A stretch of DNA of 64,000 nt from Candidatus Woesearchaeota archaeon (GTDB lineage Archaea > Nanobdellota > Nanobdellia > Woesearchaeales > GW2011-AR15). Both the position numbers and the translations under genes were made by a program. The notes under the pieces were generated by a model. That model searched no databases, had not been told where the DNA came from, and saw only the letters and a list, made by a program, of their open reading frames with translations. The first letter of the stretch is position 1. The number at the start of each line of letters is the position of its first letter. Below, in pieces: positions 9,289-41,454 of the stretch. The stretch spans positions 1 through 64,000 of the forward strand of contig JAFGJW010000019.1 of NCBI GenBank assembly GCA_016928835.1. Reading direction: 5' to 3'.

Positions 9289-11781
9289 TTATCTGCACAT
9301 CTCGGCCGCTGGCTTAGCTTCGCAGACAATTTTTTTCAATGCCTCATTTTGTTTTTTCAGTTCACTTATCTCTTCTTTATGGTTCTGGACCTCTTTTAGC
9401 AGAGGGACTATTAACTCCTTGTAATTTACACCTTCTACCTTATGCTGCTCATCATAATATACTAAAGAGGGATGTATTTTTTCAACTTCTTCAGCAATTA
9501 ATCCCTCTCTTCTAGTACCTTCAGCTGTTCCATCCTCACTGATTCTGCCATTACTGTCAACCTTGTACTCAAAAGTAACTGGCCTTAACAAGTATATCCA
9601 GTTAGCATTATCTAAATCTTCAATCTTGGTTTTATGCCTCAATGTTGAGGACTGATAACCAAATAATCCCGTATTATCAACTAACAAATCTCTGTACGTT
9701 GCTCCCACAGTTGTGCTATATGTTACAGGAGAGATTATATTTCCTGAAGACAGATAAACGTCACCACCGTGTATCTGAAAGGTTGTATCAGGGCTGCCGC
9801 CATGCCCCAAGAGCAAGTGGAGCCTGTCATTATTGTCTCTATCCAAATAAAACAGATGCTCTGCTGTAGTTCCATCATCAGCAATCCATCTCAATTGGGA
9901 AGCCCATCCTGAAGAAGTATCTGGATCCAATATCTCTATCCACTTGGCAGCAGCAGCATCCTCAACATGTAATTGTCTTTGCGGAGAAGTAGTGCCAATA
10001 CCAACACTATTAGCTGATGAATCAACAAAAAGAGTGTCTGCATCTAGGCTCACATCTCCCCAGACAGTTAATGGAGAGGTTGGTGAAGAGGTTCCTATAC
10101 CAACGCGATTATTTGTGGAGTCAACAACAAAAGTACTGCCGTCTATACTTGCATTACCATTAACATCTAATTTGTGTGTAGGTGCAGCTGCACCCACACC
10201 CAAGTTGCCAGTATTATCTTGAATTGTAACAGTATTACTTCCCTCGTCATAAAAATTTAAGTCTCCCTCAGAATCTACTCCAATTTCTATGTACTCTGAA
10301 CCACTATACTCCTCAATTCGGATTGCATACTCTGTCATTGCTGGATTTTTTATATGTAATGAAGCCTGTGGACTCGCTGTTCTTATGCCAACACGGTTAT
10401 TTCCAGCATCAACAACAAATGTCGTGCTGTCTATACTCGCACTTCCACCAACATAGAGATCATCTGGAGTATAGAATCCATAAGTTCCACTAGCCTCAGA
10501 ATAAACACCATAATCTCCTCCAGTTGCATACAAAGCATAGGTAGTAGAACTTGCACCACCATCTGTTGCTGAAAAATAACCACCATATCTTGTGCCTGAA
10601 TTTGAGGTAGAATCAACAATACCATAGACTCCAGTGCCACTTGATCCTTGTGCCCTTCCATAAACACCTCTCCCCCCAGAAGTACTATTTGCCAAACCAT
10701 GGACACCAATGCCTGAAGAAGATTCAGTCACTCCATAAATGCCCCTATTAGTACCATTAGAATGGGTAGCATGGCCCATTATACCAATACTGCTAAACTG
10801 TGAACTTTTGCCGTAGATAGCTGCAAAATCTGAAATAGAATTTTGTAACCCCATTACACCGAATCTATTACTACCACCATGGCCAACGATAGATGCCACA
10901 TCGCCTCCACCAACCGACAAACCATAATCTGAAGAAACAGATCCACCAAGCGGACCAGCTGCTATATTACCTATTATTCTTGCATCCCCCACAACTTCAA
11001 GCTGTTCTGTAGGATCCGTTTCTCCAATACCAACATTCCCACTATTATAATAAATACCTAAAGCACTTGGCGACCAATAACCACTGCCACTATCATCACT
11101 CCCGCAAACCAAACCACCAGAGGAATTAGTCTCGAGTGCAGTGCATGAAGTAAAATCCTCAAATCTTACTGTGCCGTCAACATGCAGCTTATCTGTTGGG
11201 TTTGGTCTACCAATACCAACATTTCCCTGAACTATTAATCCTCCGCTCGGAACGGAGGTTCTACTATAAGCAGTTGCACTACTAATTGACGCTCCGCCAC
11301 CATATACAGTCAATTTATTGACGCCCGCAGAATCTCCTAACTTTACTATACCAGCACTACTTACATATATATCTCCACCAGTAAGTATTCCATCTGAATC
11401 TATCTTTGTATTGATTCCTCCGTCTGTAACCACAAATTTTGTATCAGGAGAGTCTGTTCCAATACCAACTCTACCAGTAAACCCAGCGCCATAAGCATAC
11501 AAGCTTGCCCTTGAGCCGCTTCTAGTCGTATTCCATAAAAGAAGATGCGGTTTATTCAATAAAATGGAAGCATAGGTATTGCCGCTAGATGCATTTATTA
11601 CTATCGCATCCCTGCCATCGCCACCAGCTCCTCCTTCGGTCAGGTCAACTTGCAGCGGATTCCCAGTAAAAATATATGGCGCTGTTAACTCATCTGTTGT
11701 GTGCGTGCCTCCTGCTCCAAGCACATAACTAGAGTTTACTATAATAATTATTACTAGTAACTGAAAAATTGTCTTTTTCAT
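9289..11781 (-). CDS. Fibre-like secreted protein with C-terminal S74 intramolecular chaperone domain (830 aa)
   Basis: The ATG at 11781 is chosen over one seven codons upstream because GGAGGGA lies five bases before it and a signal peptide (MKKTIFQLLVIIIIVNSSYVLG) follows at once. The body has many VGIGTxxPxxxLxVxG-type beta repeats, as in phage tail fibres and trimeric adhesins, alternating with a glycine-rich segment (residues about 330-440). The C-terminal 130 residues match the Peptidase_S74 chaperone: GYQSSTLRHKTKIEDL, with the conserved S-x-x-R-x-K near residue 712, then LLRPVTFEYK, an EGLIAEEVEK segment and a terminal coiled coil. In characterised S74 proteins this domain trimerises the fibre and cuts itself off at the conserved serine. 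Here it would build a secreted fibre on an archaeal surface. Confidence 0.88.
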   Translation of the reverse strand: MKKTIFQLLVIIIIVNSSYVLGAGGTHTTDELTAPYIFTGNPLQVDLTEGGAGGDGRDAIVINASSGNTYASILLNKPHLLLWNTTRSGSRASLYAYGAGFTGRVGIGTDSPDTKFVVTDGGINTKIDSDGILTGGDIYVSSAGIVKLGDSAGVNKLTVYGGGASISSATAYSRTSVPSGGLIVQGNVGIGRPNPTDKLHVDGTVRFEDFTSCTALETNSSGGLVCGSDDSGSGYWSPSALGIYYNSGNVGIGETDPTEQLEVVGDARIIGNIAAGPLGGSVSSDYGLSVGGGDVASIVGHGGSNRFGVMGLQNSISDFAAIYGKSSQFSSIGIMGHATHSNGTNRGIYGVTESSSGIGVHGLANSTSGGRGVYGRAQGSSGTGVYGIVDSTSNSGTRYGGYFSATDGGASSTTYALYATGGDYGVYSEASGTYGFYTPDDLYVGGSASIDSTTFVVDAGNNRVGIRTASPQASLHIKNPAMTEYAIRIEEYSGSEYIEIGVDSEGDLNFYDEGSNTVTIQDNTGNLGVGAAAPTHKLDVNGNASIDGSTFVVDSTNNRVGIGTSSPTSPLTVWGDVSLDADTLFVDSSANSVGIGTTSPQRQLHVEDAAAAKWIEILDPDTSSGWASQLRWIADDGTTAEHLFYLDRDNNDRLHLLLGHGGSPDTTFQIHGGDVYLSSGNIISPVTYSTTVGATYRDLLVDNTGLFGYQSSTLRHKTKIEDLDNANWIYLLRPVTFEYKVDSNGRISEDGTAEGTRREGLIAEEVEKIHPSLVYYDEQHKVEGVNYKELIVPLLKEVQNHKEEISELKKQNEALKKIVCEAKPAAEMCR

Positions 11782-11784
11782 AGT

Positions 11785-11794
11785 GTCCCTCCTT
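11785..11794 (-). promoter_or_regulatory. Shine-Dalgarno site that fixes the S74 protein start
   Basis: The minus strand reads AAGGAGGGACACT before the ATG at 11781. This strong SD rules in the ATG at 11781 and rules out the in-frame ATG at 11802, which sits upstream of the site. Confidence 0.8.
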
Positions 11795-11862
11795 TTTAAC
11801 AATTTACAAGTCTATAAAATAAATAGTATAATGGAGGATTTACGTTTATAAATATTTCTAAA

Positions 11863-14800
11863 TCAAGAAGTCAATAAAAATTGTCCGCTTTTATGCTTCC
11901 ACCAGAAGATATTTGCTACGGACCAATCACCAGGATCAGTGCAGGTCACTCCGCTCCATTGTCTGCATGCTCTAACTTTCCATGTGTAAGAATTGCCTGG
12001 TTGGAATATGAAATAACTAATGTCCTTGCATGTATCAGGTATTCGACTGCTTAACCAATTAACTCCTTTTCCTTTTACTCTAAGTTGATAGCCATTGTTG
12101 CCATCACAACTGCTCCAGCTTAAAACCGGACCAGAAATAATAATTGAATCATTTAGCGGATTAATAAGTGAAGGCACACAGCTACTATACTGCCACCAGA
12201 AACTATTAGTTTGTGACCACGGACCTTGATTGCTGCAAGCAGAATCCCAGCATGCAGCCACTTTCCACTTGTATTCTGCCCCAGGATCAAATATTAACCC
12301 ATTGACAGTATAAGAAGTGGCTTTTGTAGCATAAGTTGCATCAATAGTCCCAGGAGGTATTCCTCCCTTAATCTTGACTTTATATTTTTCAGCTCCTTCA
12401 ACATTATCCCAATCCAAAGCAAAAGGGATATTTGAAACAACACTGCCATTACTAGGAAGATTAAGCGCAGGCGCTCCTGAAGGAATGTAGTGCCACCAAA
12501 AGGTAAATGGCTCTGACCATGGATTATAAGAGTAGCAATCTGGATCCCAGCATGCACGGACTTTCCATTCATACTCAACTCCTGGTTTATATGAAAACAC
12601 AGGTTTGAATTGTGTTACAAATAAAGGCTTACTATGCCAGTTGATTCCTCCTCCCACCAATCTAACCTGATAGGCCTCAGCACCCTCAGCTGACTTCCAA
12701 TCTAAAGTCGGTCTAACCTTTAAAACTGAATTATCTTCAGGTGCAATAAGTTCGGGACTAATTAATCCAGGCAACACAAGCTCTACATAAGTTGTTTGTC
12801 CCTCTTCTACTTGTATTGTAATATTTTCAGAGGGATAATATCCTAGTTTCTTTACACTTATTATCCTAGAACCTGCCGAAACATGGGGGATCTCAAATTC
12901 CCCGTTGTTAGTGTAAGCTACTGTTTTCTGTCCATCAAAATAAATCCACGAACCATCTACATAATTCCCATTATTGTCTCTTATAGTGCCAGCGATATTT
13001 CCCTGTGGCAGAGATAAAGATGTAGAAGGATCTCCATAAAGATTAAACGTAAACAGGTTATGATAACTGCTTCTAGAGTTCAGAGGAATGCCCTGTCTCA
13101 TTAAATCCAAAGCAATTCCGCCAGGATTATTTTGGGTAAGGAATTTAGTGTAGCGACAAGCCAGCCGCATTGTCCCGTGATATGCATATTCACATAATCC
13201 ATAATAGTTGCAGGTATTTCCATAGCACTGCTGGTACCACCCGTCTCTTGAAGCAGCTACTGTTGTGACAGCACCTTTTTCTATCAGGGCGGAGGCAAGG
13301 TTATTATCTGATTCAGGATAGCCATTGGAGCAGGATGCCTGAAAAACAAAAGAAGGTTTATTGTCATTTAGCTCTGGTGCATATATTGTGCTCATGACGT
13401 TCTCAGCATAATTAATATATCCATGACTCAACCAGGTTACAACACCAACACCGCCAGAAAATAAATCATTTGCCCCATTCCATGTTTCCTTAACGTTACT
13501 GTATGTTGTTGGAACCAGCTCAGGCTCTACGCCAAAATCTTCATCATAGATTCTGAATTTTGTCATTGCCCTTGTGTTTGACCATAGGCTTATGGCCTCT
13601 CCCAGTTCCCAGCCAAAGGTATTTGCATCAATAAAATGCATTGGCAAAATTATTTTTGAGCGCCATGAAGTGTTGCCTTGATCGTTTTCATAGTCCATTA
13701 TTTTCTGCAAAGTATCATCTAATTTCGCATAATCATTACTGTAGACAGGAATTCTTCCGACCCATACTTCAACAGCAGTTTCAACACCTCCTGGGCCAGT
13801 GTCATCAGGATACTCGCAGTAGTAACCATCATTGTCAATATCCCAGTCACCGGTTAGTTCAGCATAATAAAGGTCTGTTGGGGCAGTCTGCAAACTTGGA
13901 TCAGATCCCGGCCAGCACATAATCATTGGTACTTCTCCTGTAGAACCAGCTGGATAGCCAGGATCATGGGGGTCTGGACTTCCAACAAGCAAAACATACT
14001 GCAAATTCAGGTTCTGGTAATTATTTTGAAGCCATTCCCTTATCTTAGGAGCTCTTTGTGCTGGAGAAGGCAAGGCACCATTTACTCCCCACTGCGTCTC
14101 TGTGGCAAGGTTGACATCAAAACCTTTTGATTGTTTATGTGATACAAAATCCGATATTTTACTGCTTCCTTGTACAACATCATTTGTAGTGATTATTGCA
14201 TAGCCAGGCACTGTTAAAACCCGACTCTTTTCATACCAATCATTAATTCTATTGTTATTCAATATAAATTTGGAAGAACCCATCTCTGCTTCATTTATCT
14301 CTGTTTTTATCTTAGATTGCCCAATTTGATAATTTATTGCTAATTCAATCTTTTTACTTAACTCCAACCTATCCCTTTTTGGGTTATATTGATAAGGAAA
14401 GACCTCTATTGTCACGAATTTCAAATCCTGTTTCTGCCCTGTGTTAAACCTCACTGGTATCTGCGGATAATCAGCATCCTTGTCGTAAACATTTGCATTT
14501 TTACCATCAATTATATTCTTGTTTTCACCCCAGCAAGTAATTTGGTTGTTACTTTTATCATAGGAAACATCTGGTGGCTGAGGTGCAATAATATTAGCCA
14601 TAGCAACTTCTTTGTAACTTCTAAAAGCATAGCCAACCTGGACTGTAGATAAATCTGTTTCAGGAGGCAGCAACATATAAATAATAAAGCCTGGAAGCAT
14701 AGGGTCTCCTGGCGAGTTCGTGTAGATAATGAAATAGTTGTCCTGCGTGAGTTTCAGTTTGTTACCCTCTTCCTCTATGATGACATTATCTCTAGGAATC

Positions 14801-15060
14801 GGCAATAGGTGAACATATCCTTCAGACTCTAACATGTTCTGACTGGGACCAGCTATCTCAATAAAATACTTCTGCCTGTGAGTGTATATATTTACTAAGG
14901 GGAGTGTTGTGGTCGTTTGTGGCGCAGCAAATACATTGGTGTTAACCTCTGGACTTGCTGTTTTTGGCTTGATTATAGTCTTTTCATTACCTAGAGAAAA
15001 TCCCAAGACAAGCACTGGGAGTAGGATTAAGAATAGCAGTATTAATATATTTTTCTTCAT
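11863..15060 (-). CDS. Secreted gingipain-like C25 cysteine peptidase with FN3-like repeats (1065 aa)
   Basis: The start at 15060 follows a GGAG-type SD and begins a clear signal peptide (MKKNILILLFLILLPVLVLG). Residues about 60-280 look like the C25 pro-domain. The catalytic domain has the caspase-like fold signatures of family C25: QYVLLVGSPDPHD, an acidic DIDNDGYY segment, VWVGRIPVYS, WLSHG with the presumed catalytic His near 546, and FQASCSNG with the presumed catalytic Cys near 577. After it come a carboxypeptidase-regulatory-like beta domain (about 685-765) and three FN3-like repeats of about 90 residues, each with YxWKVxAC and ending in FWW. The protease is the most upstream gene of the surface-protein island, so processing of the neighbouring proteins is a reasonable inference. 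In-frame ATG 15081 was rejected because it lacks an SD. Confidence 0.9.
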   Translation of the reverse strand: MKKNILILLFLILLPVLVLGFSLGNEKTIIKPKTASPEVNTNVFAAPQTTTTLPLVNIYTHRQKYFIEIAGPSQNMLESEGYVHLLPIPRDNVIIEEEGNKLKLTQDNYFIIYTNSPGDPMLPGFIIYMLLPPETDLSTVQVGYAFRSYKEVAMANIIAPQPPDVSYDKSNNQITCWGENKNIIDGKNANVYDKDADYPQIPVRFNTGQKQDLKFVTIEVFPYQYNPKRDRLELSKKIELAINYQIGQSKIKTEINEAEMGSSKFILNNNRINDWYEKSRVLTVPGYAIITTNDVVQGSSKISDFVSHKQSKGFDVNLATETQWGVNGALPSPAQRAPKIREWLQNNYQNLNLQYVLLVGSPDPHDPGYPAGSTGEVPMIMCWPGSDPSLQTAPTDLYYAELTGDWDIDNDGYYCEYPDDTGPGGVETAVEVWVGRIPVYSNDYAKLDDTLQKIMDYENDQGNTSWRSKIILPMHFIDANTFGWELGEAISLWSNTRAMTKFRIYDEDFGVEPELVPTTYSNVKETWNGANDLFSGGVGVVTWLSHGYINYAENVMSTIYAPELNDNKPSFVFQASCSNGYPESDNNLASALIEKGAVTTVAASRDGWYQQCYGNTCNYYGLCEYAYHGTMRLACRYTKFLTQNNPGGIALDLMRQGIPLNSRSSYHNLFTFNLYGDPSTSLSLPQGNIAGTIRDNNGNYVDGSWIYFDGQKTVAYTNNGEFEIPHVSAGSRIISVKKLGYYPSENITIQVEEGQTTYVELVLPGLISPELIAPEDNSVLKVRPTLDWKSAEGAEAYQVRLVGGGINWHSKPLFVTQFKPVFSYKPGVEYEWKVRACWDPDCYSYNPWSEPFTFWWHYIPSGAPALNLPSNGSVVSNIPFALDWDNVEGAEKYKVKIKGGIPPGTIDATYATKATSYTVNGLIFDPGAEYKWKVAACWDSACSNQGPWSQTNSFWWQYSSCVPSLINPLNDSIIISGPVLSWSSCDGNNGYQLRVKGKGVNWLSSRIPDTCKDISYFIFQPGNSYTWKVRACRQWSGVTCTDPGDWSVANIFWWKHKSGQFLLTS

Positions 15061-15162
15061 ACTTTCTCCAAGGCAACACACAATAATTTATATCTCAAAC
15101 GCTTATTTTCTATTTGTTAATATTTTTCTATATTTAAAGCTTCTTCATAAGAATCAGTAATC

Positions 15163-15174: not shown

Positions 15175-15192
15175 TTGAGTTTCCATTGCACT

Positions 15193-15456
15193 ATGGAAGG
15201 AGTAATTGTCAATTTCCGAAGGGGAAAGAGAACCCAGAAAACCAATCAAATGGTTGTTAAGGTAGAAGATATTAATTCAAAAGAAAAAGCAGAAAAGCTT
15301 ATTGGAAACTCTGTTTCATGGACAGCCCCTGGAAAAAATAAGACTACCATTACAGGAAAAATAAGTTCTGTACATGGCAATAGTGGTGCAGTTAGGGTAT
15401 TGTTTGAAAGAGGAATGCCTGGCCAGGCAATCGGACAAAAAGTTGTTGTTTCTTAA
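15193..15456 (+). CDS. rpl35ae: Large-subunit ribosomal protein eL33 (L35Ae)
   Basis: The 87-residue product matches the L35Ae family of archaeal and eukaryotic 60S/50S subunits along its whole length: N-terminal GVIVNFRRGKRTQ, central EKAEKLIGNSVSW, then the diagnostic HGNSGAVRVLFERGMPGQ and a terminal basic/valine strand. It is a small RNA-binding beta-barrel protein. The ATG at 15193 gives the family N-terminus (MEGVIVNF). Its presence is one of the clearest signs that this DNA is archaeal. Confidence 0.93.
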   Translation: MEGVIVNFRRGKRTQKTNQMVVKVEDINSKEKAEKLIGNSVSWTAPGKNKTTITGKISSVHGNSGAVRVLFERGMPGQAIGQKVVVS

Positions 15457-16666: not shown

Positions 16667-17065
16667 CTAAGAAAAGGGCATAATCGGTCCGATCAGCATC
16701 CAGACATAAGGCGCTGCAAACACCAGCACTCCTATAATCAAGGTATGGATAATCTTTTCTCCCACTCTTCCTGCAATAGCTGCTGCTCCCGCAATCTTCA
16801 ACATTGCTATTAATGCAATAACAAATCTTACTCCAAGATCAACCCAAATATTTTCTGCTATCCCTATATGCAAAAAATTCAAAGCCCAGCCAACATTCAT
16901 ACTGACAAATACAAAGAGCATTGTAACTGGCAGCGCATGCAGGCCGTGCACAAACCAGCCCATGCCGCGCTCATCCGCATGCACAAAAACCAATTCCACA
17001 AGACCAATAATGCCGCCCATTATAAGGGCAGGGATTAAAACAAAAGTAGTTGCAGGCTCTGCCAT
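16667..17065 (-). CDS. Small membrane protein of unknown function, about four helices
   Basis: The 132-residue product is almost entirely hydrophobic: helices near residues 7-28, 41-60, 78-97 and 108-128. Conserved-looking polar residues lie in short loops (HADERGMGWFVHGLHALP between the first two helices). No family was recognised. The histidine-rich first loop might bind a metal or haem, but this is a guess. The closeness to the WalJ-like gene suggests one transcript. Confidence 0.7.
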   Translation of the reverse strand: MAEPATTFVLIPALIMGGIIGLVELVFVHADERGMGWFVHGLHALPVTMLFVFVSMNVGWALNFLHIGIAENIWVDLGVRFVIALIAMLKIAGAAAIAGRVGEKIIHTLIIGVLVFAAPYVWMLIGPIMPFS

Positions 17066-17188: not shown

Positions 17189-17199
17189 AGTTTAAATAG
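17189..17199 (+). promoter_or_regulatory. TATA box for the first membrane/coiled-coil operon
   Basis: AGTTTAAATAG lies 28 bases before the ATG at 17222. It supports ATG 17222 over the upstream in-frame start at 17162, which lies inside the GC-rich repeat. Confidence 0.6.
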
Positions 17200-17221: not shown

Positions 17222-18349
17222 ATGCAGTACAAGAACAGGAAGAGATTTTTATTATTTGGATTTCTACTATTATTCTCAAAAATAGTTTTTGCCCAGACAG
17301 GCGCCATGGGCGGCATTGAGAGAGCACTTGGTCTGCTTGCTCAGTTTATTGATGTCCTTGATAATGAAATTTATTTCAAAATCCTTATTTGGCTGTTGGT
17401 ATTTACATTAATTAGATACAGTGCAAGGAGATGGGTTTTCAAAGAAAAAGACGGTTCAAGAACTGCAAATATTGTTGCTTTAATAATCTCTTTGATGGGC
17501 ACCCTGCTATTGCCGAATGAAGTGATTCGATTTTTGTTTGTTGAGTATAGCACAATTGTGGGCCTTGCGCTTACACTGGTTCCTGTGGTGGCATTATTCT
17601 TGCTTCAGTCAAGATTCAGTGATAAGACTCCTGGATGGTCTTTTCTAAGGTTCTTAATGTTTCTTGCGCTTGGTCTGGTAACACTATCTATAGCAGAACT
17701 GCATGTAAGAACAGGCGACAGCACTATCTCAACAGAATTTGCTACATGGCTTGATTTTGCCGGCTCAATATTTTTAATAGGCGCCTTAGTCAGCCTGGGG
17801 CAGTGGCTGGGCGGTGCATTTGGAGGAAAAGGTGCTGCAGCTGGCGACGCAGGCAAAGGGGGCGGAGGGCTTTTAGATAAACTTAAGGACTGGCAGAAAA
17901 AAAGAGAAGAGAGAAAAGAAGCCGGGTTGCCTGATGAAGAAAGGTTTGAGAAGCATCTGAACAGAATAATGACATACCTTCCTGAGCTTGCCAATTTTAT
18001 TAAAGATGTTGAGACATCAGGAAATAATTTTCTAAATGAAATGAGGGCGCGTTTTGTTAGGCAATCAACTCAACCCCCTCAAGAAAACTCGCCAATTCCA
18101 AAAGGTTTCAAGTTTCCAATGCGTGATTGGAACGCATATCTAAGTGCATGCGGAAGGGCGCGGCTCCATATTGCAGCTATTTCAAGCCTTATGAACAAAT
18201 TATTTGATAACCCAAATTTCACCCGTGCAACTGCAGAGCAAATAGAGCGTATAAAGACATATAATAGTCAATTAGTTGAACATGCCAAGAAATTGTTTGA
18301 AAATCAAGTAAAAATTATGGAGTCCAAGAACAATTGGAAGAGAGAATAA
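17222..18349 (+). CDS. Membrane protein of unknown function with C-terminal helical domain (375 aa)
   Basis: Starting at ATG 17222, the protein has a signal peptide (residues 1-24, ending FSKIVFA), then four hydrophobic helices (about 49-63, 81-98, 105-126, 138-156). A further amphipathic or membrane segment follows (TEFATWLDFAGSIFLIGALV, about 172-195), then a glycine-rich linker and a charged helical C-terminal domain of about 160 residues. Residues 45-130 are clearly homologous to the protein at 20048-20575 (shared LVFxLxxYxAR, TAxIVALIxSLM and LLxPxxVI patterns). The WLDFAGSI segment matches WLEFGGAI at the start of the 20578-22026 protein. So this protein is the fused form of a module that is split in the next operon. 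Function is unknown. It is probably co-transcribed with the coiled-coil gene one base downstream. Confidence 0.82.
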   Translation: MQYKNRKRFLLFGFLLLFSKIVFAQTGAMGGIERALGLLAQFIDVLDNEIYFKILIWLLVFTLIRYSARRWVFKEKDGSRTANIVALIISLMGTLLLPNEVIRFLFVEYSTIVGLALTLVPVVALFLLQSRFSDKTPGWSFLRFLMFLALGLVTLSIAELHVRTGDSTISTEFATWLDFAGSIFLIGALVSLGQWLGGAFGGKGAAAGDAGKGGGGLLDKLKDWQKKREERKEAGLPDEERFEKHLNRIMTYLPELANFIKDVETSGNNFLNEMRARFVRQSTQPPQENSPIPKGFKFPMRDWNAYLSACGRARLHIAAISSLMNKLFDNPNFTRATAEQIERIKTYNSQLVEHAKKLFENQVKIMESKNNWKRE

Positions 18350-18350
18350 G

Positions 18351-19961
18351 ATGACAAGTCTAGCAGACAGGTTTAGAAAGACAAGAGAAAAAGTGAAAGA
18401 GGAGATAGGATTCCACACAGGCACAACTGCTGATCCCCAGAAGAATATTGATGCAGTAAGTATTACCAATGAGGAGGGGCTGAGACAATTAGGCTTGTTG
18501 ATAAAGGCTGTGCAAAGCCACAGTGATATGTTGCACGGACATGTAAAGCTCTTTGCAGGCAATCAGGAAGTATATGCCATGCTTGAGGAAATGAGGGGAA
18601 TAGTTGAGGAGGCTCTTAGTGAATTGAGCAATAAAGAGGCAGCAGTTGGTGAAACAGTGAACAATCAAGAGAGATTATTTTTAGAGGAACTAAATGCTCA
18701 TCTGGATGCAGAAAGACAAAGACAAGCCGAGGAAAAAAGAAAACAGGAAGAAGCAGAAAAAGAAGCAGAAATACAGGAATTAAATGTGCATCTGGATGCA
18801 GAAAGACAAAGACAAGCCGAGGAAAAAAGAAAACAGGAAGAAGCAGAAGAATCCAAACATCTTGATTTTAAGAATGTAATACAGGGACTGGTTAAAGTGT
18901 TCCAAGAACTAAAAAACATCCTTAATAAAGAAGTGCAGGAGATTGATGAAGAATACAGAGGCATCCGTTGGGAAGAAAGCACAGATATTGAAAAGATAAA
19001 TTTAGATTTGACACGCCTTCATAATGCTGTTAGCATACTTTATAATGGCCTTCAAGGACAGAGAGAAGTGCGATTAATTGGTAAGAAGATACATGAAAGT
19101 TCAAAAACAATTATTGCTCAGCCGTATTTCAAAGACTCTAAAAAACTCATTGAAAGAGTGAGGACGATAAGTCGTGCTTTTGACTGGTTAGAGAACTCAC
19201 TTGGAAGGCTTATATTGAGCGAAGACCACATTTTGAAGAGACTTGCAGAGAGCATGAGCAAACTTTTAGAGATACAAGAAAAGATTAAGGAATTCTTACA
19301 ACGTAAGGAAAGGAAGTATCCACAATATCAAGAATTACAGCAGAAAATAGAAACAGAAATAACTAGTATCCAACAACTGCAGAATCAAGTAAAGGACTTA
19401 GTTGACAATAATTTGAATATGATTAAGAAAAGACAGCAAAATGAAGAAGGCTACCTTCTACAACAAAAACAAGATTTGAAGAACCTCAGAAATGTTGCAA
19501 AAGAATTTTCAAACAAGCTTGGAACAATATTCAAGGATATGGAGGGCATGGTTAGAGAAGGAGAGGATATTGATTGGGACAAAGCAGATAAAAATACAAT
19601 TATTACACCATATGTACAAAAAAGCTACCCAAAAATTCAGGAAATATTTGATATATTAGGTGGCCAAGGTGGTTTGTCACAAGAGATCCAAGAGCTCGCA
19701 AAAGGTGTAAGATTTGAAGCTGAAATCAATAGAAGCTTAAAGAATGATTTTGAAGAAAAAAATAAAGTTATAGATAATATCTATGAAAATATTAGACAAA
19801 TTGTCGCTGCAATAAACAGGATTATTGCTGAGATACAAACATCAATTCCTAAGGAAGAAGCAGAAGCCTCAACTCAACCGCAATCAGCTGCTGCAGATCA
19901 ACCGCCGACAAGTCCGCCACCTTCAAGTAATCATCCTCCTGGCCCAACTACTACGGTATAG
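18351..19961 (+). CDS. Long coiled-coil protein with proline-rich tail (536 aa)
   Basis: The protein is cytoplasmic-looking (no signal peptide) and almost wholly alpha-helical and charged. Residues about 100-170 form a strongly predicted coiled coil with a nearly perfect 30-residue tandem repeat (HLDAERQRQAEEKRKQEEAE, twice). Residues 170-500 are further helical segments, and the last 35 residues are a Pro/Ser/Ala-rich disordered tail. It starts one base after the stop of the membrane-protein gene, so the two are co-transcribed and may form a complex in which this is the cytoplasmic stalk. It was not recognised as any known family. Confidence 0.8.
   Translation: MTSLADRFRKTREKVKEEIGFHTGTTADPQKNIDAVSITNEEGLRQLGLLIKAVQSHSDMLHGHVKLFAGNQEVYAMLEEMRGIVEEALSELSNKEAAVGETVNNQERLFLEELNAHLDAERQRQAEEKRKQEEAEKEAEIQELNVHLDAERQRQAEEKRKQEEAEESKHLDFKNVIQGLVKVFQELKNILNKEVQEIDEEYRGIRWEESTDIEKINLDLTRLHNAVSILYNGLQGQREVRLIGKKIHESSKTIIAQPYFKDSKKLIERVRTISRAFDWLENSLGRLILSEDHILKRLAESMSKLLEIQEKIKEFLQRKERKYPQYQELQQKIETEITSIQQLQNQVKDLVDNNLNMIKKRQQNEEGYLLQQKQDLKNLRNVAKEFSNKLGTIFKDMEGMVREGEDIDWDKADKNTIITPYVQKSYPKIQEIFDILGGQGGLSQEIQELAKGVRFEAEINRSLKNDFEEKNKVIDNIYENIRQIVAAINRIIAEIQTSIPKEEAEASTQPQSAAADQPPTSPPPSSNHPPGPTTTV
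18691..18848 (+). repeat. In-frame 90-bp tandem duplication in coiled-coil gene
   Basis: Bases 18691-18758 recur at 18781-18848 with only two mismatches, both at the 5' end, giving a 90-base period (30 codons). The near identity at DNA level, including third positions, shows a recent duplication that lengthened the coiled coil. Confidence 0.9.
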
Positions 19962-20014
19962 CTGCACCAAAATTGCAATTTTTGAAGAAGGCTTAATCTC
20001 ATAAAAAACAAAAA

Positions 20015-20025
20015 CCTTATATACC
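20015..20025 (+). promoter_or_regulatory. TATA box for the second membrane operon
   Basis: CCTTATATACC lies 27 bases before the ATG at 20048 and is the only good promoter-like site in the gap after the coiled-coil gene. It suggests a second transcript covering 20048-23437. Confidence 0.6.
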
Positions 20026-20047
20026 TCTATTCTCATTTCTTTTAGTA

Positions 20048-20575
20048 ATGAAAAAAAGGATTGTCTTAGTTTTAACTATTCTGATTAATTCTGTCAGTGC
20101 GTCTGCGCTTATAACTGGCAAGATCATACCTTCCAGAATTACACAGGCGCTGCAATACCTCCTTATAGACCTTCCAAAAAATTACAACACTCCCCCTTTT
20201 ATTATATACGCAAAGCTGCTGATGTGGGTTCTTGTCTTTGCATTGCTTAATTATGGGGCAAGAAAAGCCATTGTCAGAAAAGATGGAGGGGCTGTTGAGA
20301 AGAGAACAGCAAAGATTGTTGCACTGATCTTGTCATTAATGAGCGTCTTATTGATGCCTGAAGCAGTCATCGCATATATCTTCAAGAATTATAGTCTCGT
20401 GATCTCGATTCTGCTTTTGCTTTTCCCAGCGTTTCTTGGGGTAATACTCAATTTGAATGAGAATGTATTTAACAAGCCTGGCAGGGCATATGCAATGTTA
20501 AGATCCTTCCTTTACATATTGATTGGAATCCTTGCGATAGTGGCAGCAAATGTAATTCACAGCTATCCAATATAA
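20048..20575 (+). CDS. Four-helix membrane protein, paralogue of the 17222 protein N-terminal half
   Basis: The 175-residue protein has a signal peptide (residues 1-20), an extracytoplasmic segment of about 35 residues and four hydrophobic helices. The stretch LLMWVLVFALLNYGARKAIV and TAKIVALILSLMSVLLMP aligns with the same region of the protein at 17222-18349. It stops where that protein goes on to its WLDF-type segment; that segment is instead found at the start of the next gene, two bases downstream in another frame. Function unknown. It is likely to partner the 20578-22026 product in the membrane. Confidence 0.8.
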   Translation: MKKRIVLVLTILINSVSASALITGKIIPSRITQALQYLLIDLPKNYNTPPFIIYAKLLMWVLVFALLNYGARKAIVRKDGGAVEKRTAKIVALILSLMSVLLMPEAVIAYIFKNYSLVISILLLLFPAFLGVILNLNENVFNKPGRAYAMLRSFLYILIGILAIVAANVIHSYPI

Positions 20576-20577
20576 AA

Positions 20578-22026
20578 ATGAAAAACAAGCTATATAGAAC
20601 ACTGCCCATTCTCCTTTTCTTAATTATACCTTTAGTTGCTGCCCAGGTTGAATTAAACAGAGAAGTTGCCAACCAGCTGGCTGACTGGCTTGAATTTGGC
20701 GGTGCCATCTCATTATTATTTGGCTTCCTCTCTTTTCTCTACACCTTATTTACAGGAGAGGACCTTACAGAAGCTGCAAAAGATGCTGCAGAGAAAGCAG
20801 CAGGAAAGAAAGATGATGAAGGGAAGAAGGAGGACGAGGAAGAGGGAGAGAGGATTGGTAAGATTGCTGGTTATGTTTATGATAAAGAAACTAGACAACC
20901 TGTCCCTGCTGCAGATGTCTGGATTGAAGGCACATCTATAAGTACAAAAACTATCGATGAAGAAGAGCACAAAGGTGCATTTATACTGGAAGAAGTGCCC
21001 ACAAACAGAGGATTGGTAGTCAGAGCAAAGGCAGAGGACTATAGAGAAGGGGCGCATACAGACCCTGGTGGATACCCCTCTTCAAAAATAAAACTAACCA
21101 AAGAGAATCCTGTGTTTCCAAAAAGAGGAGAAGAGGGCGTCCTAATACAGCTGGAGAAAGTAAGAGACGATCTTGGCAAGATATGGGGAAGAGTGGTTGA
21201 AGTCATTGAGGAGCGAAGACAAAGAGCGCCAGAAAAACAGCTCACAGTTGTTGTTAAACAAGATGAGCACCTTAGTGCGACAACTGATTCTGAAGGCAGA
21301 TTTATTATTCAAAATGTACGATTAGGCGAACGTCTTGACATCTCAATCAAAGAGGATGAAGATTATCGAGTGATAAAAGAGGCAGAAGTAATGCTCGACG
21401 AACATAACAAAACACAGGAAGCTAATATATTTGTTTTAAAAATCGAACTAAAAGCTATTGTTTTTATACGTAATGAAGTTGACCAGCCAATGAGAGCAGA
21501 TAAGGTATATATAGCAGAATATCCAAATACTGTTGGGCAGTTAGTGAGTGAGATGGGACAGATATTCTATCTTTTTGACAAGGATTTAAAAAAAGATGAA
21601 GGATTAACATTTGTTGCAGAAGCAGAACATTATGCAAAAACTACACACTTAGATGAAGGAGGTCATCCTGATAGCAAGGTAGTGTTTACAACAGAAAAGC
21701 CTATACAAGAAATAGTAATCAAATTAAAACCTAAACCAAAGCAAGCTGATTTTATAATGGACCAGATTAGAACAAACCCAGAAAGTAATATAACTCCTGG
21801 AAATGTAATTGATATAAAAGTTCCTGTAAATCCCGGTTTTAAGATTGATTCTAGTAAGTCCTATAGCATGGGTATTAGAGAAGGAGGTAGAGATATTACT
21901 CTAGAAGTCCGACTCGGCGAGGACAGTACAATGTTAATAGGTAAATATAGAACACCAGCAGATTTTACAGAAGAAGTCCTGAGAGCTGAAATCACTGTCA
22001 GTGCAGACATAATTCCAAGAGAATAA
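20578..22026 (+). CDS. Membrane-anchored protein with carboxypeptidase-regulatory-like beta domains (482 aa)
   Basis: A signal peptide (residues 1-21, ending IPLVAA) is followed by the WLEFGGAISLLFGFLSFLYTLF membrane segment, then a Lys/Glu-rich linker (about 60-95). Next come three beta-sandwich units of the carboxypeptidase-regulatory type: IAGYVYDKETRQPVPAADVW near 97, KIWGRVVEVI near 200 and a third near 300. The tail is another beta domain (about 390-482). The N-terminal segment is homologous to the WLDF region of the 17222 protein. It begins two bases after the previous stop and ends one base before the next start, so the three genes form one operon. No enzyme motif is seen. Confidence 0.8.
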   Translation: MKNKLYRTLPILLFLIIPLVAAQVELNREVANQLADWLEFGGAISLLFGFLSFLYTLFTGEDLTEAAKDAAEKAAGKKDDEGKKEDEEEGERIGKIAGYVYDKETRQPVPAADVWIEGTSISTKTIDEEEHKGAFILEEVPTNRGLVVRAKAEDYREGAHTDPGGYPSSKIKLTKENPVFPKRGEEGVLIQLEKVRDDLGKIWGRVVEVIEERRQRAPEKQLTVVVKQDEHLSATTDSEGRFIIQNVRLGERLDISIKEDEDYRVIKEAEVMLDEHNKTQEANIFVLKIELKAIVFIRNEVDQPMRADKVYIAEYPNTVGQLVSEMGQIFYLFDKDLKKDEGLTFVAEAEHYAKTTHLDEGGHPDSKVVFTTEKPIQEIVIKLKPKPKQADFIMDQIRTNPESNITPGNVIDIKVPVNPGFKIDSSKSYSMGIREGGRDITLEVRLGEDSTMLIGKYRTPADFTEEVLRAEITVSADIIPRE

Positions 22027-22027
22027 A

Positions 22028-23437
22028 ATGGTTAGAGTACAACGTATCGGAAATGTGAAAATACATTTTGACCAGAGTCATAAAACTAAGCCCAGAATAG
22101 AACCAATTAAACCATGGGGACCTCCAGCTAAATATAGTACTGGCGAGATAGGTTTTGAAGGCAAGGTGCATAATGTAACTTGGAGATATCATTGGGCCAT
22201 TATTTTAAGGCCGAAAGAAAACCCGGAATTGAGAGAATTTGCAGTAAATAGTCGATTATTAAGTCCTCTTGGAACTGGCCCGGAAGTAAAAGAAATTAAA
22301 GCTGCTATTGATGTAACCACACCAGGAGTATACGTAGTCCACTGGGTATTATTTGACAAAGAAGATAAAATCATGAATGAGAATATTGAGGAGACACAGC
22401 TTACAGTTGTTAATAAGGGATTTAGGGTTAAGATTACACGGCCCCAACCAGGAACATATAAAATGTCTGAGTTTATGAGGCATGTCTCAGTGTTCACTGG
22501 AGAAATAGTTGGGGGTCCTGGAAACAGGAAATACCATTGTCACTGGAGTATTATCCATAATAACCATCAATATCCTGTATCTAGTCAAGTTAAGGAAGGT
22601 CCTGGGCCTATAGAATCAAAGAAGTTAAAATCTCATATATATAATATACTTGAAAACGGGAAAAATGAAATTAGACTTGTCTGTGAACATATCGATGAAG
22701 GTAACTTACACTTAAGAAATCAGGCTATTGTTGATATTAACATTGAACCGGGTATTGATGATGCTAACATAATTCAGGAATTGAATCGAGATTTTAAAAA
22801 TTATTCAGATACGATTCCAGCTTATTTTAGGGCCCTAAATGAATTTAAGAATGAACTTCTCAAGGCAGAAAGACTAGAAACAGTACTAAAAGAGTTGCAA
22901 CACAATGAAAAGATGGCAGTTGTAGAATCCACTGTAAGAATCATGCAAGATTGGCAACAAATTGAACAGCATTTGCAGGCATTAAGAGACAAACTGCATA
23001 TTGACACAAGATACTATAATCATCTAGTTGACTTTTTTAAGACAATAGAGCAAAACAGATTACCCAATACCACTGAAACAAAGCAAGCTATTGATGAATT
23101 AGAAAGAATTGCTAGAATATTAAAAATGACTAGGTCTTTATTTCAACAGACAATTAGGGAGGATATAGATATTGAAAATAAATTAGCCAGAATTGTCAAT
23201 GGCCTAAATAGAGGGATAGATGAGAAAAAGGTTGAGAATGAGATATATCAACTTAAATCTAATCCATCTTATCACATGAATCAAGATGTCAGACAGTTAG
23301 TACAAGCGTTACTTGGATTTACTGGTAATCAGAAAAATCAATTAAGGACATATGGTAAAATATTTGATGATTTGTATAACACAATAGGCCATATGACAGA
23401 TAGACTACGTAAACTTCTGGTTGCTCTAAAACATTAG
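22028..23437 (+). CDS. Protein with two Ig-like domains and a C-terminal helical domain (469 aa)
   Basis: There is no signal peptide. Residues about 35-130 and 135-240 look like two related beta-sandwich domains (WRYHWAIILRP in the first, KYHCHWSIIHNN in the second). From about 245 to the end the protein is helical and coiled-coil-like, similar in style to the C-terminal half of the 18351 product, though direct homology could not be shown by eye. The gene follows the 20578-22026 stop by one base. The operon therefore pairs a membrane protein, a beta-domain protein and a helical protein, mirroring the first operon. Function unknown. Confidence 0.78.
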   Translation: MVRVQRIGNVKIHFDQSHKTKPRIEPIKPWGPPAKYSTGEIGFEGKVHNVTWRYHWAIILRPKENPELREFAVNSRLLSPLGTGPEVKEIKAAIDVTTPGVYVVHWVLFDKEDKIMNENIEETQLTVVNKGFRVKITRPQPGTYKMSEFMRHVSVFTGEIVGGPGNRKYHCHWSIIHNNHQYPVSSQVKEGPGPIESKKLKSHIYNILENGKNEIRLVCEHIDEGNLHLRNQAIVDINIEPGIDDANIIQELNRDFKNYSDTIPAYFRALNEFKNELLKAERLETVLKELQHNEKMAVVESTVRIMQDWQQIEQHLQALRDKLHIDTRYYNHLVDFFKTIEQNRLPNTTETKQAIDELERIARILKMTRSLFQQTIREDIDIENKLARIVNGLNRGIDEKKVENEIYQLKSNPSYHMNQDVRQLVQALLGFTGNQKNQLRTYGKIFDDLYNTIGHMTDRLRKLLVALKH

Positions 23438-23538: not shown

Positions 23539-24249
23539 ATGGAAATAAAACTTGACAAGAAACCAAAAAAGCCGAGGATAATCGAAGGGTTTCCTGGCTT
23601 TGGATTGATAGGAACAATATCCACTGAATTTCTCATTGACCATCTAAAGGCCCAGCAGATAGGCAGCTTTACATATGATGAGCTGCCGGCGACTGTTGCC
23701 ATACATAAAGAAAAGTTGGTTGATCCAATGGGGATTTTCTATATTAAAGACCATAATCTAGTGATATTCCACACCATACTTAACTCTGTGGGATTGGAAT
23801 GGAGATTAAGCAAATCTATATCCAAGATGGCAAAAGAGCTTCAGTCTCCTGAGATAATATGTCTTGAAGGTGTTTCATCACCGCAGGTTACAGAATCAAA
23901 AAGGGTGTTCTACTATTGTACAGATGCTGCAATAAGAAAAAAGGTAAAAGACATCCCTGAGATCGAACCTTTGAAAGAGAGCATTATTGTAGGTGTTACT
24001 GGAGCGCTCATGCTAAGATCAAAAATACCTGTCACAGCTTTCTTTGGTGAGACTCATACTGAGCTGCCTGATAGCAAGGCTGCGTCAAATATAATAAAAG
24101 CACTGGATATATATCTAAAATTGAAAGTTGACTACAAACCATTATTAAAACAAGCTGAAGACTTTGAAAAGAAATTCAGAGACATATTAAAACAGAGTGT
24201 TGTGGCCACAAAACAAAGGGATAAGAAACAGATGAGCTACTTAGGCTAA
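23539..24249 (+). CDS. PAC2-family proteasome-assembly-chaperone-like protein
   Basis: The 236-residue protein has the archaeal PAC2 signature: IIEGFPGFGLIGTISTEFLI near residue 14, DELPATVAIH, PEIICLEGVSSP, VGVTGALM and a terminal AFFGETHTELPDSKAA. Archaeal PAC2 relatives such as PbaB bind the C-terminal tails of the proteasome and proteasome-like ATPases. Its exact partner here is unknown. The C-terminal 40 residues form a basic helix. The start is supported by an SD seven bases upstream. It converges with the 24246-24731 gene, overlapping by four bases. Confidence 0.88.
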   Translation: MEIKLDKKPKKPRIIEGFPGFGLIGTISTEFLIDHLKAQQIGSFTYDELPATVAIHKEKLVDPMGIFYIKDHNLVIFHTILNSVGLEWRLSKSISKMAKELQSPEIICLEGVSSPQVTESKRVFYYCTDAAIRKKVKDIPEIEPLKESIIVGVTGALMLRSKIPVTAFFGETHTELPDSKAASNIIKALDIYLKLKVDYKPLLKQAEDFEKKFRDILKQSVVATKQRDKKQMSYLG

Positions 24250-28062: not shown

Positions 28063-28917
28063 TTAAGTATTCAATATTTTGTAAAAAGAATCAAATAATG
28101 GCTGCTCTGTTGATAATAAGAAGAATTTTCCTCCAACAGCCCTAGCTTCCTGTTCTATCATTAGGATATGCTCATATAATTTTTCTCTGTATTCCTGCCT
28201 TTTTGCCTCGCTTATATAAGTCTCAATCTCTTTTTCTGTCTCAGAGTCCTTTAAAATAACGCTTCCCCTGAGTTCAAAGTTAGTCTCTGACCTGTCCAAT
28301 ATCTGTATTATCTTCAGCTCATGGTTTTTAAAAAGAGGAAATACATTCTTTATCTCTTCTATATTGAAGAGAAAATCTGAGATAACGACTATCATCGATC
28401 TTGATGTTATATTCTTCTTATAATGTCTCATCAGTTCCTCAAATTCAATTATGCCCTCGCATTTTACTTTGTTTAAGTGATGCAGGAATCCAACAACCTG
28501 CGACATGCCCCTTTTCGCCCTGAAAGTTACTATGTCTTTAGACATTGTCGACATAAAGAAATTGTTGTTTTCTCTGGCTGCCAAATACGCAAATCCAAGA
28601 CCCAGCATTGCTGCATACTCGAATTTTTTGTATTTTTTTGTACCAAATGTCATTGACTTTGACACGTCTATTATAACATGTACAGTCAATGCTTTCTCCT
28701 CTTCGTATCTCTTCACATAAAAGTTATCAGTCCTTGCATAGATCCTCCAGTCTATAGCTCTATAATCATCTCCTGGAACATATTGCCTGAAGTCATTGAC
28801 AATAAGTCCCCTGCCAAGATGTGTAGATTTCTTAGTACCTGCAAAGCTGGATGTGACTCTCTTGTTTACTATCAAGCCAAATCTCTTAAGCTGCGATAAG
28901 AAATCTAGATTTATCAT
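28063..28917 (-). CDS. DUF58 protein, MoxR module 1
   Basis: The 284-residue protein carries the DUF58 hallmark RQYVPGDDYRAIDWRIYART near residues 44-63. A degenerate VWA-like domain follows: VIIDVSKSM near 83 keeps a D-x-S-x-S metal site, and VISDF comes near 165. DUF58 proteins are partners of MoxR ATPases in envelope or metalloenzyme maturation complexes. The ATGA overlap with the MoxR gene upstream (28914-28917) shows tight coupling. This is the last gene of a six-gene operon starting at 35338. Confidence 0.9.
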   Translation of the reverse strand: MINLDFLSQLKRFGLIVNKRVTSSFAGTKKSTHLGRGLIVNDFRQYVPGDDYRAIDWRIYARTDNFYVKRYEEEKALTVHVIIDVSKSMTFGTKKYKKFEYAAMLGLGFAYLAARENNNFFMSTMSKDIVTFRAKRGMSQVVGFLHHLNKVKCEGIIEFEELMRHYKKNITSRSMIVVISDFLFNIEEIKNVFPLFKNHELKIIQILDRSETNFELRGSVILKDSETEKEIETYISEAKRQEYREKLYEHILMIEQEARAVGGKFFLLSTEQPLFDSFYKILNT

Positions 28918-29855
28918 GCCTTCTCAATTATCTTTTTAATTGCATCATCTGTTGAAAGACCTTTTCTCTCTGCCTCAAAATTCAATATTATTCTGTGTCT
29001 AAGAATAGGATAAGCCATTGCTTCAATATCCTTCTTGCTTACATAATTCCGGCCGTCTATCAAAGCATTTGCCTTGCTTGCAAGTATCAGACCAATAGAA
29101 GCCCTGGGAGATGCGCCATACTCGATTAATTCCTTTTCTGTTCTTGTTTTCTCTATTATCTTCAGTACAAATTTCTTAAGGTCTTTGGCAATTGGCGTCT
29201 GTCTTGTATAATGTTGGAATTTCTCAATCATCTTGCTGTCAAACACTTTCCTGACATTATATTCACTCTTTGCACCCGTGTATTTATCTATTATCTCTTC
29301 TTCCTCCTCAATGCTTGGGTAGTTTATCTTTATCTTAAATAAGAACCTATCAGATTGGGCCTCAGGCAGCGGATATGTACCTTCTTGTTCAATTGGATTT
29401 TGCGTAGCGAGTACAAAAAAGGGCCAATCCAATTTGAAAGTTTGGTTTCCGGCAGTAACCTGTCGTTCCTGCATTGCCTCCAATAACGCTGACTGTGTTT
29501 TTGGTGTCGCTCTGTTTATCTCATCAACAAGCAGTACATTTGCAAATATTGGGCCCCTGTGGAATACGAACTCTCTCTTCCCACCCTTCTCCTCAAGAAC
29601 ATAAGTGCCGGTGATATCAGACGGCATTAAATCCGGGGTTGATTGGATCCTTGAAAACTTGAGATCCATAAGTTCTGACAGGGTCTTTATAGTAAGAGTC
29701 TTTCCCAGACCAGGATAACCTTCAAGGAGTGCGTTTGAGTCACATAACACAGTTACTATTATTTGTCTTATTATCTCATCCTGACCAACAATGACTTTCT
29801 TCATCTCCTTAAAGATTTCATCAATCTTTTGTTTTACTTCCTTCAAGCTAATCAC
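28914..29855 (-). CDS. moxR: MoxR-family AAA+ ATPase, module 1
   Basis: The 313-residue protein has Walker A GYPGLGKT at 46-53, Walker B LLVDEINRA near 110 and the MoxR signatures ALLEAMQERQVT, ATQNPIEQEGTYPLPEAQ and SPRASIGL. MoxR ATPases are chaperones that remodel or insert cofactors into target complexes, working with VWA-domain proteins. Four-base overlaps with both neighbours place it in an operon with DUF58 and two VWA proteins. It is a paralogue of the MoxR at 40372-41379 but differs in the P-loop (GLGKT against GIAKT). Confidence 0.95.
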   Translation of the reverse strand: MISLKEVKQKIDEIFKEMKKVIVGQDEIIRQIIVTVLCDSNALLEGYPGLGKTLTIKTLSELMDLKFSRIQSTPDLMPSDITGTYVLEEKGGKREFVFHRGPIFANVLLVDEINRATPKTQSALLEAMQERQVTAGNQTFKLDWPFFVLATQNPIEQEGTYPLPEAQSDRFLFKIKINYPSIEEEEEIIDKYTGAKSEYNVRKVFDSKMIEKFQHYTRQTPIAKDLKKFVLKIIEKTRTEKELIEYGASPRASIGLILASKANALIDGRNYVSKKDIEAMAYPILRHRIILNFEAERKGLSTDDAIKKIIEKA

Positions 29856-30628
29856 CTACTTATTCTTTTGAAATAATCTTTTATTACTTCTCTATGCTCT
29901 GTGGAGATATCTTCCTCATAGCTTTCCTGAGCATAGCCTCCAACTTCTGCGGGGAAACTGCCGCCGAAATCATTCTTTTCAGGTTCATTTATCTCATTAA
30001 TATCAATATCGGTGTTATATGTATCAATTGTTATATTCAATTCTTGATCACCCAGCTGTGCTACTTTTCCATTCTCCATATATTCAGTTGTCTGTCTTAA
30101 TGGAACCCTGTTTGAGATGTCAACAGCAATATCTTTGATTCTGTTAACAACTGGTTGGATTGGAATGCCTATTCTCTCAGTAATCCTAAACACATCAAAG
30201 CCATAGGCAGAAATGACAATTGTAAGAAATAGTAGAACTGAGACGCCACTAACCTTAATCAGTAGCTTCTTACTATTGAGAAATGCATTGATGTCAGCAT
30301 TTGTCACCAGGTTAATTACGTCTGTATGGAGTGCCAAGGCAACAGGATTATCATCGCTGCTACAATCATATGAAGTCCTAAGCTTTTCCTCCAGTTGGGG
30401 ATATCTCTTCTCTAAAACCATTATCTTGTTCTGCCTGATTTTTTTAATGAAACTTATTAAGAAAAAAACAGTGCTTATCAATGCTGCAAACAATATATCT
30501 ATGCGGAAGAACGTAAATACAAAGTAGAAAAGGCTAAAAAACAACAATGCAGTGAGGAGCGAATCAAGGAAAAGAAGAGCGATAGAGCTAAAGATAATCT
30601 CAAAAAACATCTTTTTTACAAGTCTCAT
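29852..30628 (-). CDS. Membrane protein of unknown function in MoxR module 1 (258 aa)
   Basis: The start at 30628 is chosen because it makes the same ATGA overlap with the upstream gene as seen elsewhere in the operon; an ATG at 30646 is less likely. Three hydrophobic segments lie in the first 60 residues and another near 126-145. A soluble region of about 110 residues follows and ends with acidic and aromatic sequence. Similar proteins are found between MoxR and VWA genes in other archaea, but no named family was recognised. It probably anchors the MoxR-DUF58 pair at the membrane. Confidence 0.75.
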   Translation of the reverse strand: MRLVKKMFFEIIFSSIALLFLDSLLTALLFFSLFYFVFTFFRIDILFAALISTVFFLISFIKKIRQNKIMVLEKRYPQLEEKLRTSYDCSSDDNPVALALHTDVINLVTNADINAFLNSKKLLIKVSGVSVLLFLTIVISAYGFDVFRITERIGIPIQPVVNRIKDIAVDISNRVPLRQTTEYMENGKVAQLGDQELNITIDTYNTDIDINEINEPEKNDFGGSFPAEVGGYAQESYEEDISTEHREVIKDYFKRISR

Positions 30629-31125: not shown

Positions 31126-31133
31126 TCAAACAC

Positions 31134-40350: not shown

Positions 40351-40371
40351 TATGTGCTTATTTACAAGTGT

Positions 40372-41379: not shown

Positions 41380-41454
41380 TCATATTCTGGTTATTGTTCT
41401 AATCGCAACTTTTAAATAATGCATAGCGCCTTAATATATAAAAAGAGGACAAAC

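What the first reader, a model, noticed from the sequence alone, without database searches (positions are those of the whole stretch)
17222..23437. Two adjacent operons of unrecognised membrane, coiled-coil and Ig-like proteins
Five genes with one- or two-base spacing form two transcripts (17222-19961 and 20048-23437). Each contains a four-helix membrane module, a helical/coiled-coil protein and linker or beta domains. None matched a family I know. The repeated design suggests a membrane complex with a cytoplasmic stalk and exposed beta domains, duplicated and diverged. This is the strongest candidate for an undescribed system in the window.
Basis: partly seen in the sequence, partly recalled or inferred. 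Interest (0 to 1): 0.68.

Follow-up and report, generated by a model that had tools for sequence, protein, structure and literature searches.

The report
Modular Woesearchaeal membrane scaffold locus
Next to a ribosomal-protein gene and a proteasome-chaperone gene, many uncultured Woesearchaeota keep a fast-evolving set of genes for an undescribed membrane anchor that carries changeable domains, probably on its inner face; what it does is unknown.

Summary
The five genes and two tight transcripts are real. A is a signal peptide plus a five-helix membrane module with a cytoplasmic helical bundle. C is a paralogue of that module (37-39% identity) stopping after helix 4; D begins with the missing fifth helix. 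So C+D is a split copy of A, a 4+1 split that recurs in other genomes. Loop charges put the C-termini inside, so D's and E's beta domains are predicted cytoplasmic, not exposed.

The module matches no Pfam, PHROG or PDB family. A profile finds it in 155 of 353 genomes of the order (Woesearchaeota), often in tandem, typically between rpl35Ae and a PAC2 gene. Attached or neighbouring domains vary: coiled coils, papain-like peptidase, glycosyltransferase, SPFH, beta domains. In two genomes tandem copies share near-identical membrane modules (91-96% DNA identity) but unrelated tails. B and E have no convincing homologue in 338 genomes.

Best reading: a membrane platform whose paralogues may co-assemble and display exchangeable cytoplasmic cargo. 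Architecture well supported; physiological role open. Novel at family and system level.

The parts
17191..17198 (+). TATA-like box about 24 nt before gene A (leaderless promoter, inferred)
   Evidence: direct reading of sequence
17222..18349 (+). Gene A: signal peptide + 5-TM membrane module (to about 17830) + cytoplasmic helical bundle
   Evidence: ORF; TM; homologues; AF2 model with the membrane helices mostly pLDDT 73-93
17222..17830 (+). 5-TM membrane module (conserved core of the family)
   Evidence: profile A1 match E=7.8e-47, (A is itself a row of A1)
17873..18343 (+). C-terminal helical domain of A (helices 218-234, 238-281, 300-329, 338-374)
   Evidence: AF2 model; no sequence relatives
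18351..19961 (+). Gene B: soluble, helical/coiled-coil, orphan sequence
   Evidence: no homologue in 338 genomes; no Pfam family above cutoff
20017..20023 (+). TATA-like box about 24 nt before gene C (inferred promoter)
   Evidence: direct reading of sequence
20048..20575 (+). Gene C: signal peptide + first four TM helices of the module
   Evidence: paralogue of A; profile E=1.2e-41, (C is itself a row of A1)
20578..22026 (+). Gene D: signal peptide + one TM (equivalent of A's fifth helix) + predicted cytoplasmic beta domains
   Evidence: the same 4+1 split in other genomes
20695..20751 (+). D transmembrane helix; overlaps the stretch that matches A's TM5 (35% over 23 aa)
20863..21054 (+). CarboxypepD_reg-like domain of D
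   Evidence: Pfam PF13715 E=1e-8, 35.5 bits (cutoff 32.2)
22028..23437 (+). Gene E: soluble; beta-rich N-terminal part, helical C-terminal half (about 22760-23431)
   Evidence: secondary structure of a low-confidence model; only marginal partial hits in 338 genomes
15175..15456 (+). rpl35Ae, conserved neighbour of the locus
   Evidence: Pfam PF01247 E=8.2e-21; near the module in 13 family-level groups
23539..24249 (+). PAC2-family gene (proteasome assembly chaperone type), conserved downstream neighbour
   Evidence: Pfam PF09754 E=3e-36; same-strand downstream in 13 family-level groups
16667..17065 (-). small 4-TM protein, recurrent neighbour of the locus (accessory, uncertain)
   Evidence: near the module in 9 of the loci tabulated; alignment A7

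Best explanation
The locus most likely encodes a membrane-anchored scaffold that faces the cytoplasm. The anchor is a module of five TM helices behind a signal peptide: one chain in A, and two chains (C plus the first helix of D) in the second copy. Paralogous modules sit in the membrane, plausibly as one mixed oligomer, and hold different cytoplasmic domains: helical bundles, coiled-coil stalks, beta domains, and in other species enzymes. The soluble proteins B and E would dock on these stalks. Shown: the genes, the homology of the modules, the split, the syntenic conservation, the exchange of attached domains. Supported by statistics only: topology. Inferred: oligomerisation and docking of B and E. 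The physiological role is a guess; I favour envelope or membrane organisation, possibly linked to protein turnover, at about 15-20%.
For: A/C paralogy and D's first TM matching A's TM5. The same 4-TM ORF followed within 0-19 nt by a TM-led ORF in L038, L044, L045, L049, L097, L098 (twice) and L172. Loops 1-2 and 3-4 richer in K+R than loops 2-3 and 4-5 in 42 of 46 proteins. The module found in 155/353 genomes of the order and 106/279 of a phylum sample. Conserved neighbours rpl35Ae and PAC2. Tandem paralogues with near-identical membrane modules but unrelated tails: 95.9% DNA identity over 533 nt, 90.7% over 624 nt. Attached papain-like peptidase with matching Q/C/H/N residues and glycosyltransferase; SPFH gene in a sister operon (its assignment to L033/L148 is from reading the sequence). 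AF2 gives a membrane bundle with mostly confident helices and a separate helical bundle in A.
Against: No experiment and no predicted complex. pTM of A is 0.38, so domain packing is unknown. B and E are orphans, so conservation does not show that they belong to the complex. The second copy is absent or undetected in many genomes. Papain-like and BACON/fn3 domains are more often extracytoplasmic in other organisms (general knowledge), which sits uneasily with a cytoplasmic placement. The charge statistic uses related sequences, so its p-value is not independent. Most genomes are MAGs, so near-identical tandem modules could in part be assembly effects.
Confidence: 0.5

Rival explanations
1. The module is a component of a secretion or type IV pilus-like machine, acting like a VirB6/TrbL-type or platform protein, with the soluble proteins as stalk or gating parts.
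For: The N-out, five-TM, C-in topology resembles what I recall for VirB6. A distantly similar family of 5-TM proteins without signal peptide occurs in tandem triplets, with a T2SSE-type ATPase in the same locus in 12 of 16 loci. The A1-A6 profile alignment is colinear over 155 columns, score 194; controls against the same profile score 134-140 over 25-50 columns.
Against: No T2SSE or other secretion ATPase was recognised among the mapped neighbours of the module (not an exhaustive scan). No Pfam match to TrbL/VirB6 for any of 25 members. Profile A6 gives inflated scores with every control, so the homology is not secure.
Confidence: 0.15
2. A membrane-tethered proteostasis complex working with PAC2 and the proteasome, comparable in role to SPFH/FtsH-type assemblies.
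For: PAC2 is the conserved downstream gene. Individual loci add an SPFH/HflK-like gene, papain-like peptidases, or a downstream Lon_C gene. An archaeal PAC2 homologue is reported as a proteasome activator (PMC3605417, title and abstract only).
Against: rpl35Ae is as well conserved a neighbour, so linkage may be only syntenic inheritance. In the PAC2-anchored sample only 10 of 52 loci with at least 4 kb upstream have a recognisable module. PAC2 has its own promoter-like box in the window.
Confidence: 0.15
3. A defence or conflict system with a membrane sensor and exchangeable cytoplasmic effectors.
For: Hypervariable tails, swapped enzymatic domains including a peptidase, orphan partner proteins.
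Against: Stable chromosomal position over many families is unlike mobile defence islands. PADLOC hits are weak and confined mainly to coiled-coil regions. No match in phage records and no relative confirmed on viral contigs.
Confidence: 0.12
4. One reading: a membrane complex with a cytoplasmic stalk and surface-exposed beta domains.
For: Beta domains are present in D and probably in E; such domains are often extracellular.
Against: Charge pattern puts C-termini inside; E has no signal peptide or TM; D has two N-terminal hydrophobic segments that end inside.
Confidence: 0.06

Closest known systems
VirB6/TrbL membrane proteins of type IV secretion
   Same: five TM helices with N-out, C-in topology; tandem paralogues with long extensions known in Rickettsiales (both from memory)
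   Different: no profile match; no secretion ATPase recognised in the locus; predicted signal peptide; exchangeable enzymatic tails
SP-less 5-TM triplets of DPANN type IV pilus-like loci
   Same: five TM, short charged loop between TM1 and TM2, tandem arrangement; colinear profile alignment
   Different: no signal peptide, no large cytoplasmic tail, different neighbourhood with a T2SSE ATPase
SPFH/HflK-type membrane scaffolds
   Same: membrane-bound scaffold idea; an SPFH gene lies in one sister operon (L033/L148)
   Different: different architecture; the module itself is not SPFH
CarboxypepD_reg-like proteins
   Same: D carries this beta domain above the Pfam cutoff
   Different: usually extracellular (general knowledge); here predicted cytoplasmic behind an N-terminal TM

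Membership tests
VirB6/TrbL (type IV secretion) | Pfam profile match | tested here: not met
   25 members scanned, no match at E<=0.01
VirB6/TrbL (type IV secretion) | encoded with VirB4/VirB8-VirB10 or a coupling ATPase | tested here: inconclusive
   no secretion ATPase among the families listed for neighbours, but the A4 table shows only 25 of 69 families
VirB6/TrbL (type IV secretion) | N-out, five TM, C-in | tested here: met
   by charge statistics only
DPANN SP-less 5-TM triplet family | sequence homology over the TM region | tested here: inconclusive
   score above controls, but the A6 profile is poorly calibrated
DPANN SP-less 5-TM triplet family | T2SSE ATPase in the locus | tested here: not met
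   12 of 16 triplet-search loci have it; among the module and PAC2 loci only L047, itself a triplet, and a partial match in L141
CarboxypepD_reg domain (D only) | profile match above curated cutoff | tested here: met
   PF13715 35.5 bits vs 32.2; PF13620 33.2 vs 32.3
Anti-phage defence system | match to a known defence protein | tested here: not met
   PADLOC: only weak matches, mainly over coiled coils
Known solved or viral fold for the module | Foldseek match to PDB or BFVD | tested here: not met
   no match at E<=0.001
SPFH/HflK scaffold | Band_7 domain in A-E | tested here: not met
   absent from A-E

The most novel reading that the evidence does not exclude
A lineage-wide Woesearchaeal membrane organelle or cortex: an oligomeric platform of a new membrane fold that swaps its cytoplasmic enzymes and stalks between species while concerted evolution keeps paralogous membrane modules compatible.
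Probability: 0.25. Interest if true: 0.85.

Novelty: categorically new. Interest (0 to 1): 0.62.

Why it matters
The module is widespread in a large group of uncultured archaea, sits at a conserved chromosomal place, and has no recognised family or fold. If the platform model holds, it is an unusual case of one membrane module being kept similar between paralogues while the cytoplasmic cargo is exchanged, and it gives a concrete target for finding out how DPANN cells organise their membranes or protein turnover.

Tried and rejected
Naming the family through Pfam, NCBIfam, PHROGs and PADLOC: of A-E only D matched above a curated cutoff; the rest were weak, mostly coiled-coil, matches. PDB by sequence: nothing convincing for B, E or the A5 profile. 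Foldseek on the A model against PDB and BFVD: nothing at E<=0.001. AF2 of E from a single sequence: mean pLDDT 38.7, not usable beyond secondary structure. Sequence linkage of B, E and A's tail to other helical tails by iterated profiles: none found. Viral or phage origin: no relative found. First hhalign runs gave one-column artefacts and were discarded; the rerun showed that profile A6 is inflated against every target, so only the difference from controls is used. Protein comparison failed internally. The tree of modules shows both lineage-specific and older tandem pairs; A and C fall in a small clade with low support. Literature: two surveys of DPANN and archaeal hypothetical protein families were searched by keyword only (PMC8204110, PMC9258230); their family tables were not readable here, so these families may be listed there without a function.

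Full report
Observation. Two TATA-like boxes, each about 24 nt before the start codons of A and C, fit two leaderless transcripts; this is read from the sequence and not tested. The window is G000:C4 of a 1.53 Mb genome, 95% complete. The lineage assignment rests on the PAC2-anchored scan, whose hits are mostly titled Woesearchaeota or Nanoarchaeota. G004, which the tool labels as the same family as the window genome, appears to be Archaeon GW2011_AR15 (L132), judged from the matching gene map and contig size.

What the proteins are. A has a signal peptide and five further hydrophobic segments (a simple hydropathy scan). C matches A at 37-39% over about 115 residues and ends after the fourth helix. 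D starts with a signal peptide and one TM whose sequence matches A's fifth helix (23 residues, 35%). So C plus D's N-terminus is a split copy of A's module. The same split, a 4-TM ORF followed 0-19 nt later by a TM-led ORF, occurs in L038, L044, L045, L049, L097, L098 and L172, so it is not a frameshift peculiar to this genome. B and E have neither signal peptide nor TM.

Topology. In 46 related proteins with six hydrophobic segments, K+R is enriched in loops TM1-2 and TM3-4 over loops TM2-3 and TM4-5 in 42. That puts the N-terminus outside and the C-terminus inside. The sequences are related, so the p-value is not a fair probability, but the direction is consistent.

Distribution. With A alone, 25 of 118 genomes match, the window's own included. 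With a 25-row profile, 155 of 353 genomes of the order and 106 of 279 of a phylum sample match. Both figures include weak hits; the ones followed up were SP-less triplet proteins, so the number with a true module is somewhat lower. Many genomes have two to five copies in tandem. Phyla outside this one were not searched.

Neighbourhood. In the loci mapped around the module, rpl35Ae lies near it in 23 loci of 13 family-level groups and PAC2 downstream on the same strand in 18 loci of 13 groups (my counts from the table, and the loci were chosen because they hold the module). The reverse view is weaker: taking PAC2 as anchor, 10 of 52 loci with at least 4 kb upstream have a module recognisable by profile. 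Some of the remainder have a multi-TM protein with a coiled-coil partner at the same place but below profile detection (L159, L168, L130), which I read as diverged versions without proof.

Modularity. Attached or operon-linked domains differ between genomes: papain-like peptidase on L126, L127 and L093 and in partner genes of L092 and L040 (Pfam hits for L126 and L092, similarity for the others; Q, C, H and N positions read from the sequences), glycosyltransferase on L090 by Pfam and, by my reading only, L088; an SPFH gene in L033/L148 (Band_7 found once in set A3; identified with this gene by reading); a Lon_C gene downstream in L050. In L148 two tandem genes share 95.9% DNA identity over 533 nt covering just the membrane module and nothing else; in L121, 90.7% over 624 nt. 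This looks like gene conversion or recent partial duplication of the module with unrelated tails, and is the main reason for proposing that paralogues co-assemble. The window's own A and C are an older pair, with only 20 nt of DNA similarity.

Structure. The A model (19 sequences) has mean pLDDT 74, membrane-helix blocks mostly at 73-93, and pTM 0.38; Foldseek found nothing at E<=0.001 in PDB or BFVD. The E model is poor.

A possible distant family. SP-less 5-TM proteins in tandem triplets (L216-L230) share the TM1-loop-TM2 pattern and lie in loci holding a T2SSE ATPase in 12 of 16. The profile comparison favours homology over controls but is poorly calibrated, so I list it as a lead.

Mechanism. 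Most likely a cytoplasm-facing membrane platform with exchangeable cargo. Gene content, module homology, the split, synteny and domain exchange are shown. Topology is statistical. Oligomerisation, docking of B and E, and any link to PAC2 are inferred. The role is open.

Novelty. No known family was met on a defining test apart from D's beta domain and the VirB6-like topology, which alone does not define membership. I call it categorically new in the sense that it fits no described kind; this depends on the libraries used, and on two surveys whose family tables I could not read.

Noticed in passing
window 11863-15081 (-): Gingipain-like C25 peptidase with C25 propeptide and a CarboxypepD_reg domain.
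   Followed up: partly
window 9289-11802 (-): Protein with a C-terminal S74 endosialidase-chaperone domain, as in phage tail fibres, in an archaeal chromosome.
   Followed up: partly
window 28063-35338 (-) and 40354-43298 (+): Two MoxR / VWA-BatA type gene clusters in one window (three members checked by Pfam).
   Followed up: partly
window 619-6534 and 6579-9242 (-): Two very large adjacent proteins with similar C-terminal regions by eye, weak fn3 matches.
   Followed up: no
window 16667-17065 (-): Small 4-TM protein recurring near the module; invariant E, D, H, H, N, K, E, H positions in ten sequences suggest a functional site.
   Followed up: partly
L216-L230: Tandem triplets of SP-less 5-TM proteins, with a T2SSE-type ATPase in the locus in 12 of 16 loci.
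   Followed up: partly
L148:5154-8362 and L121:7027-9871: Tandem genes with near-identical membrane modules and unrelated tails, suggesting gene conversion.
   Followed up: partly
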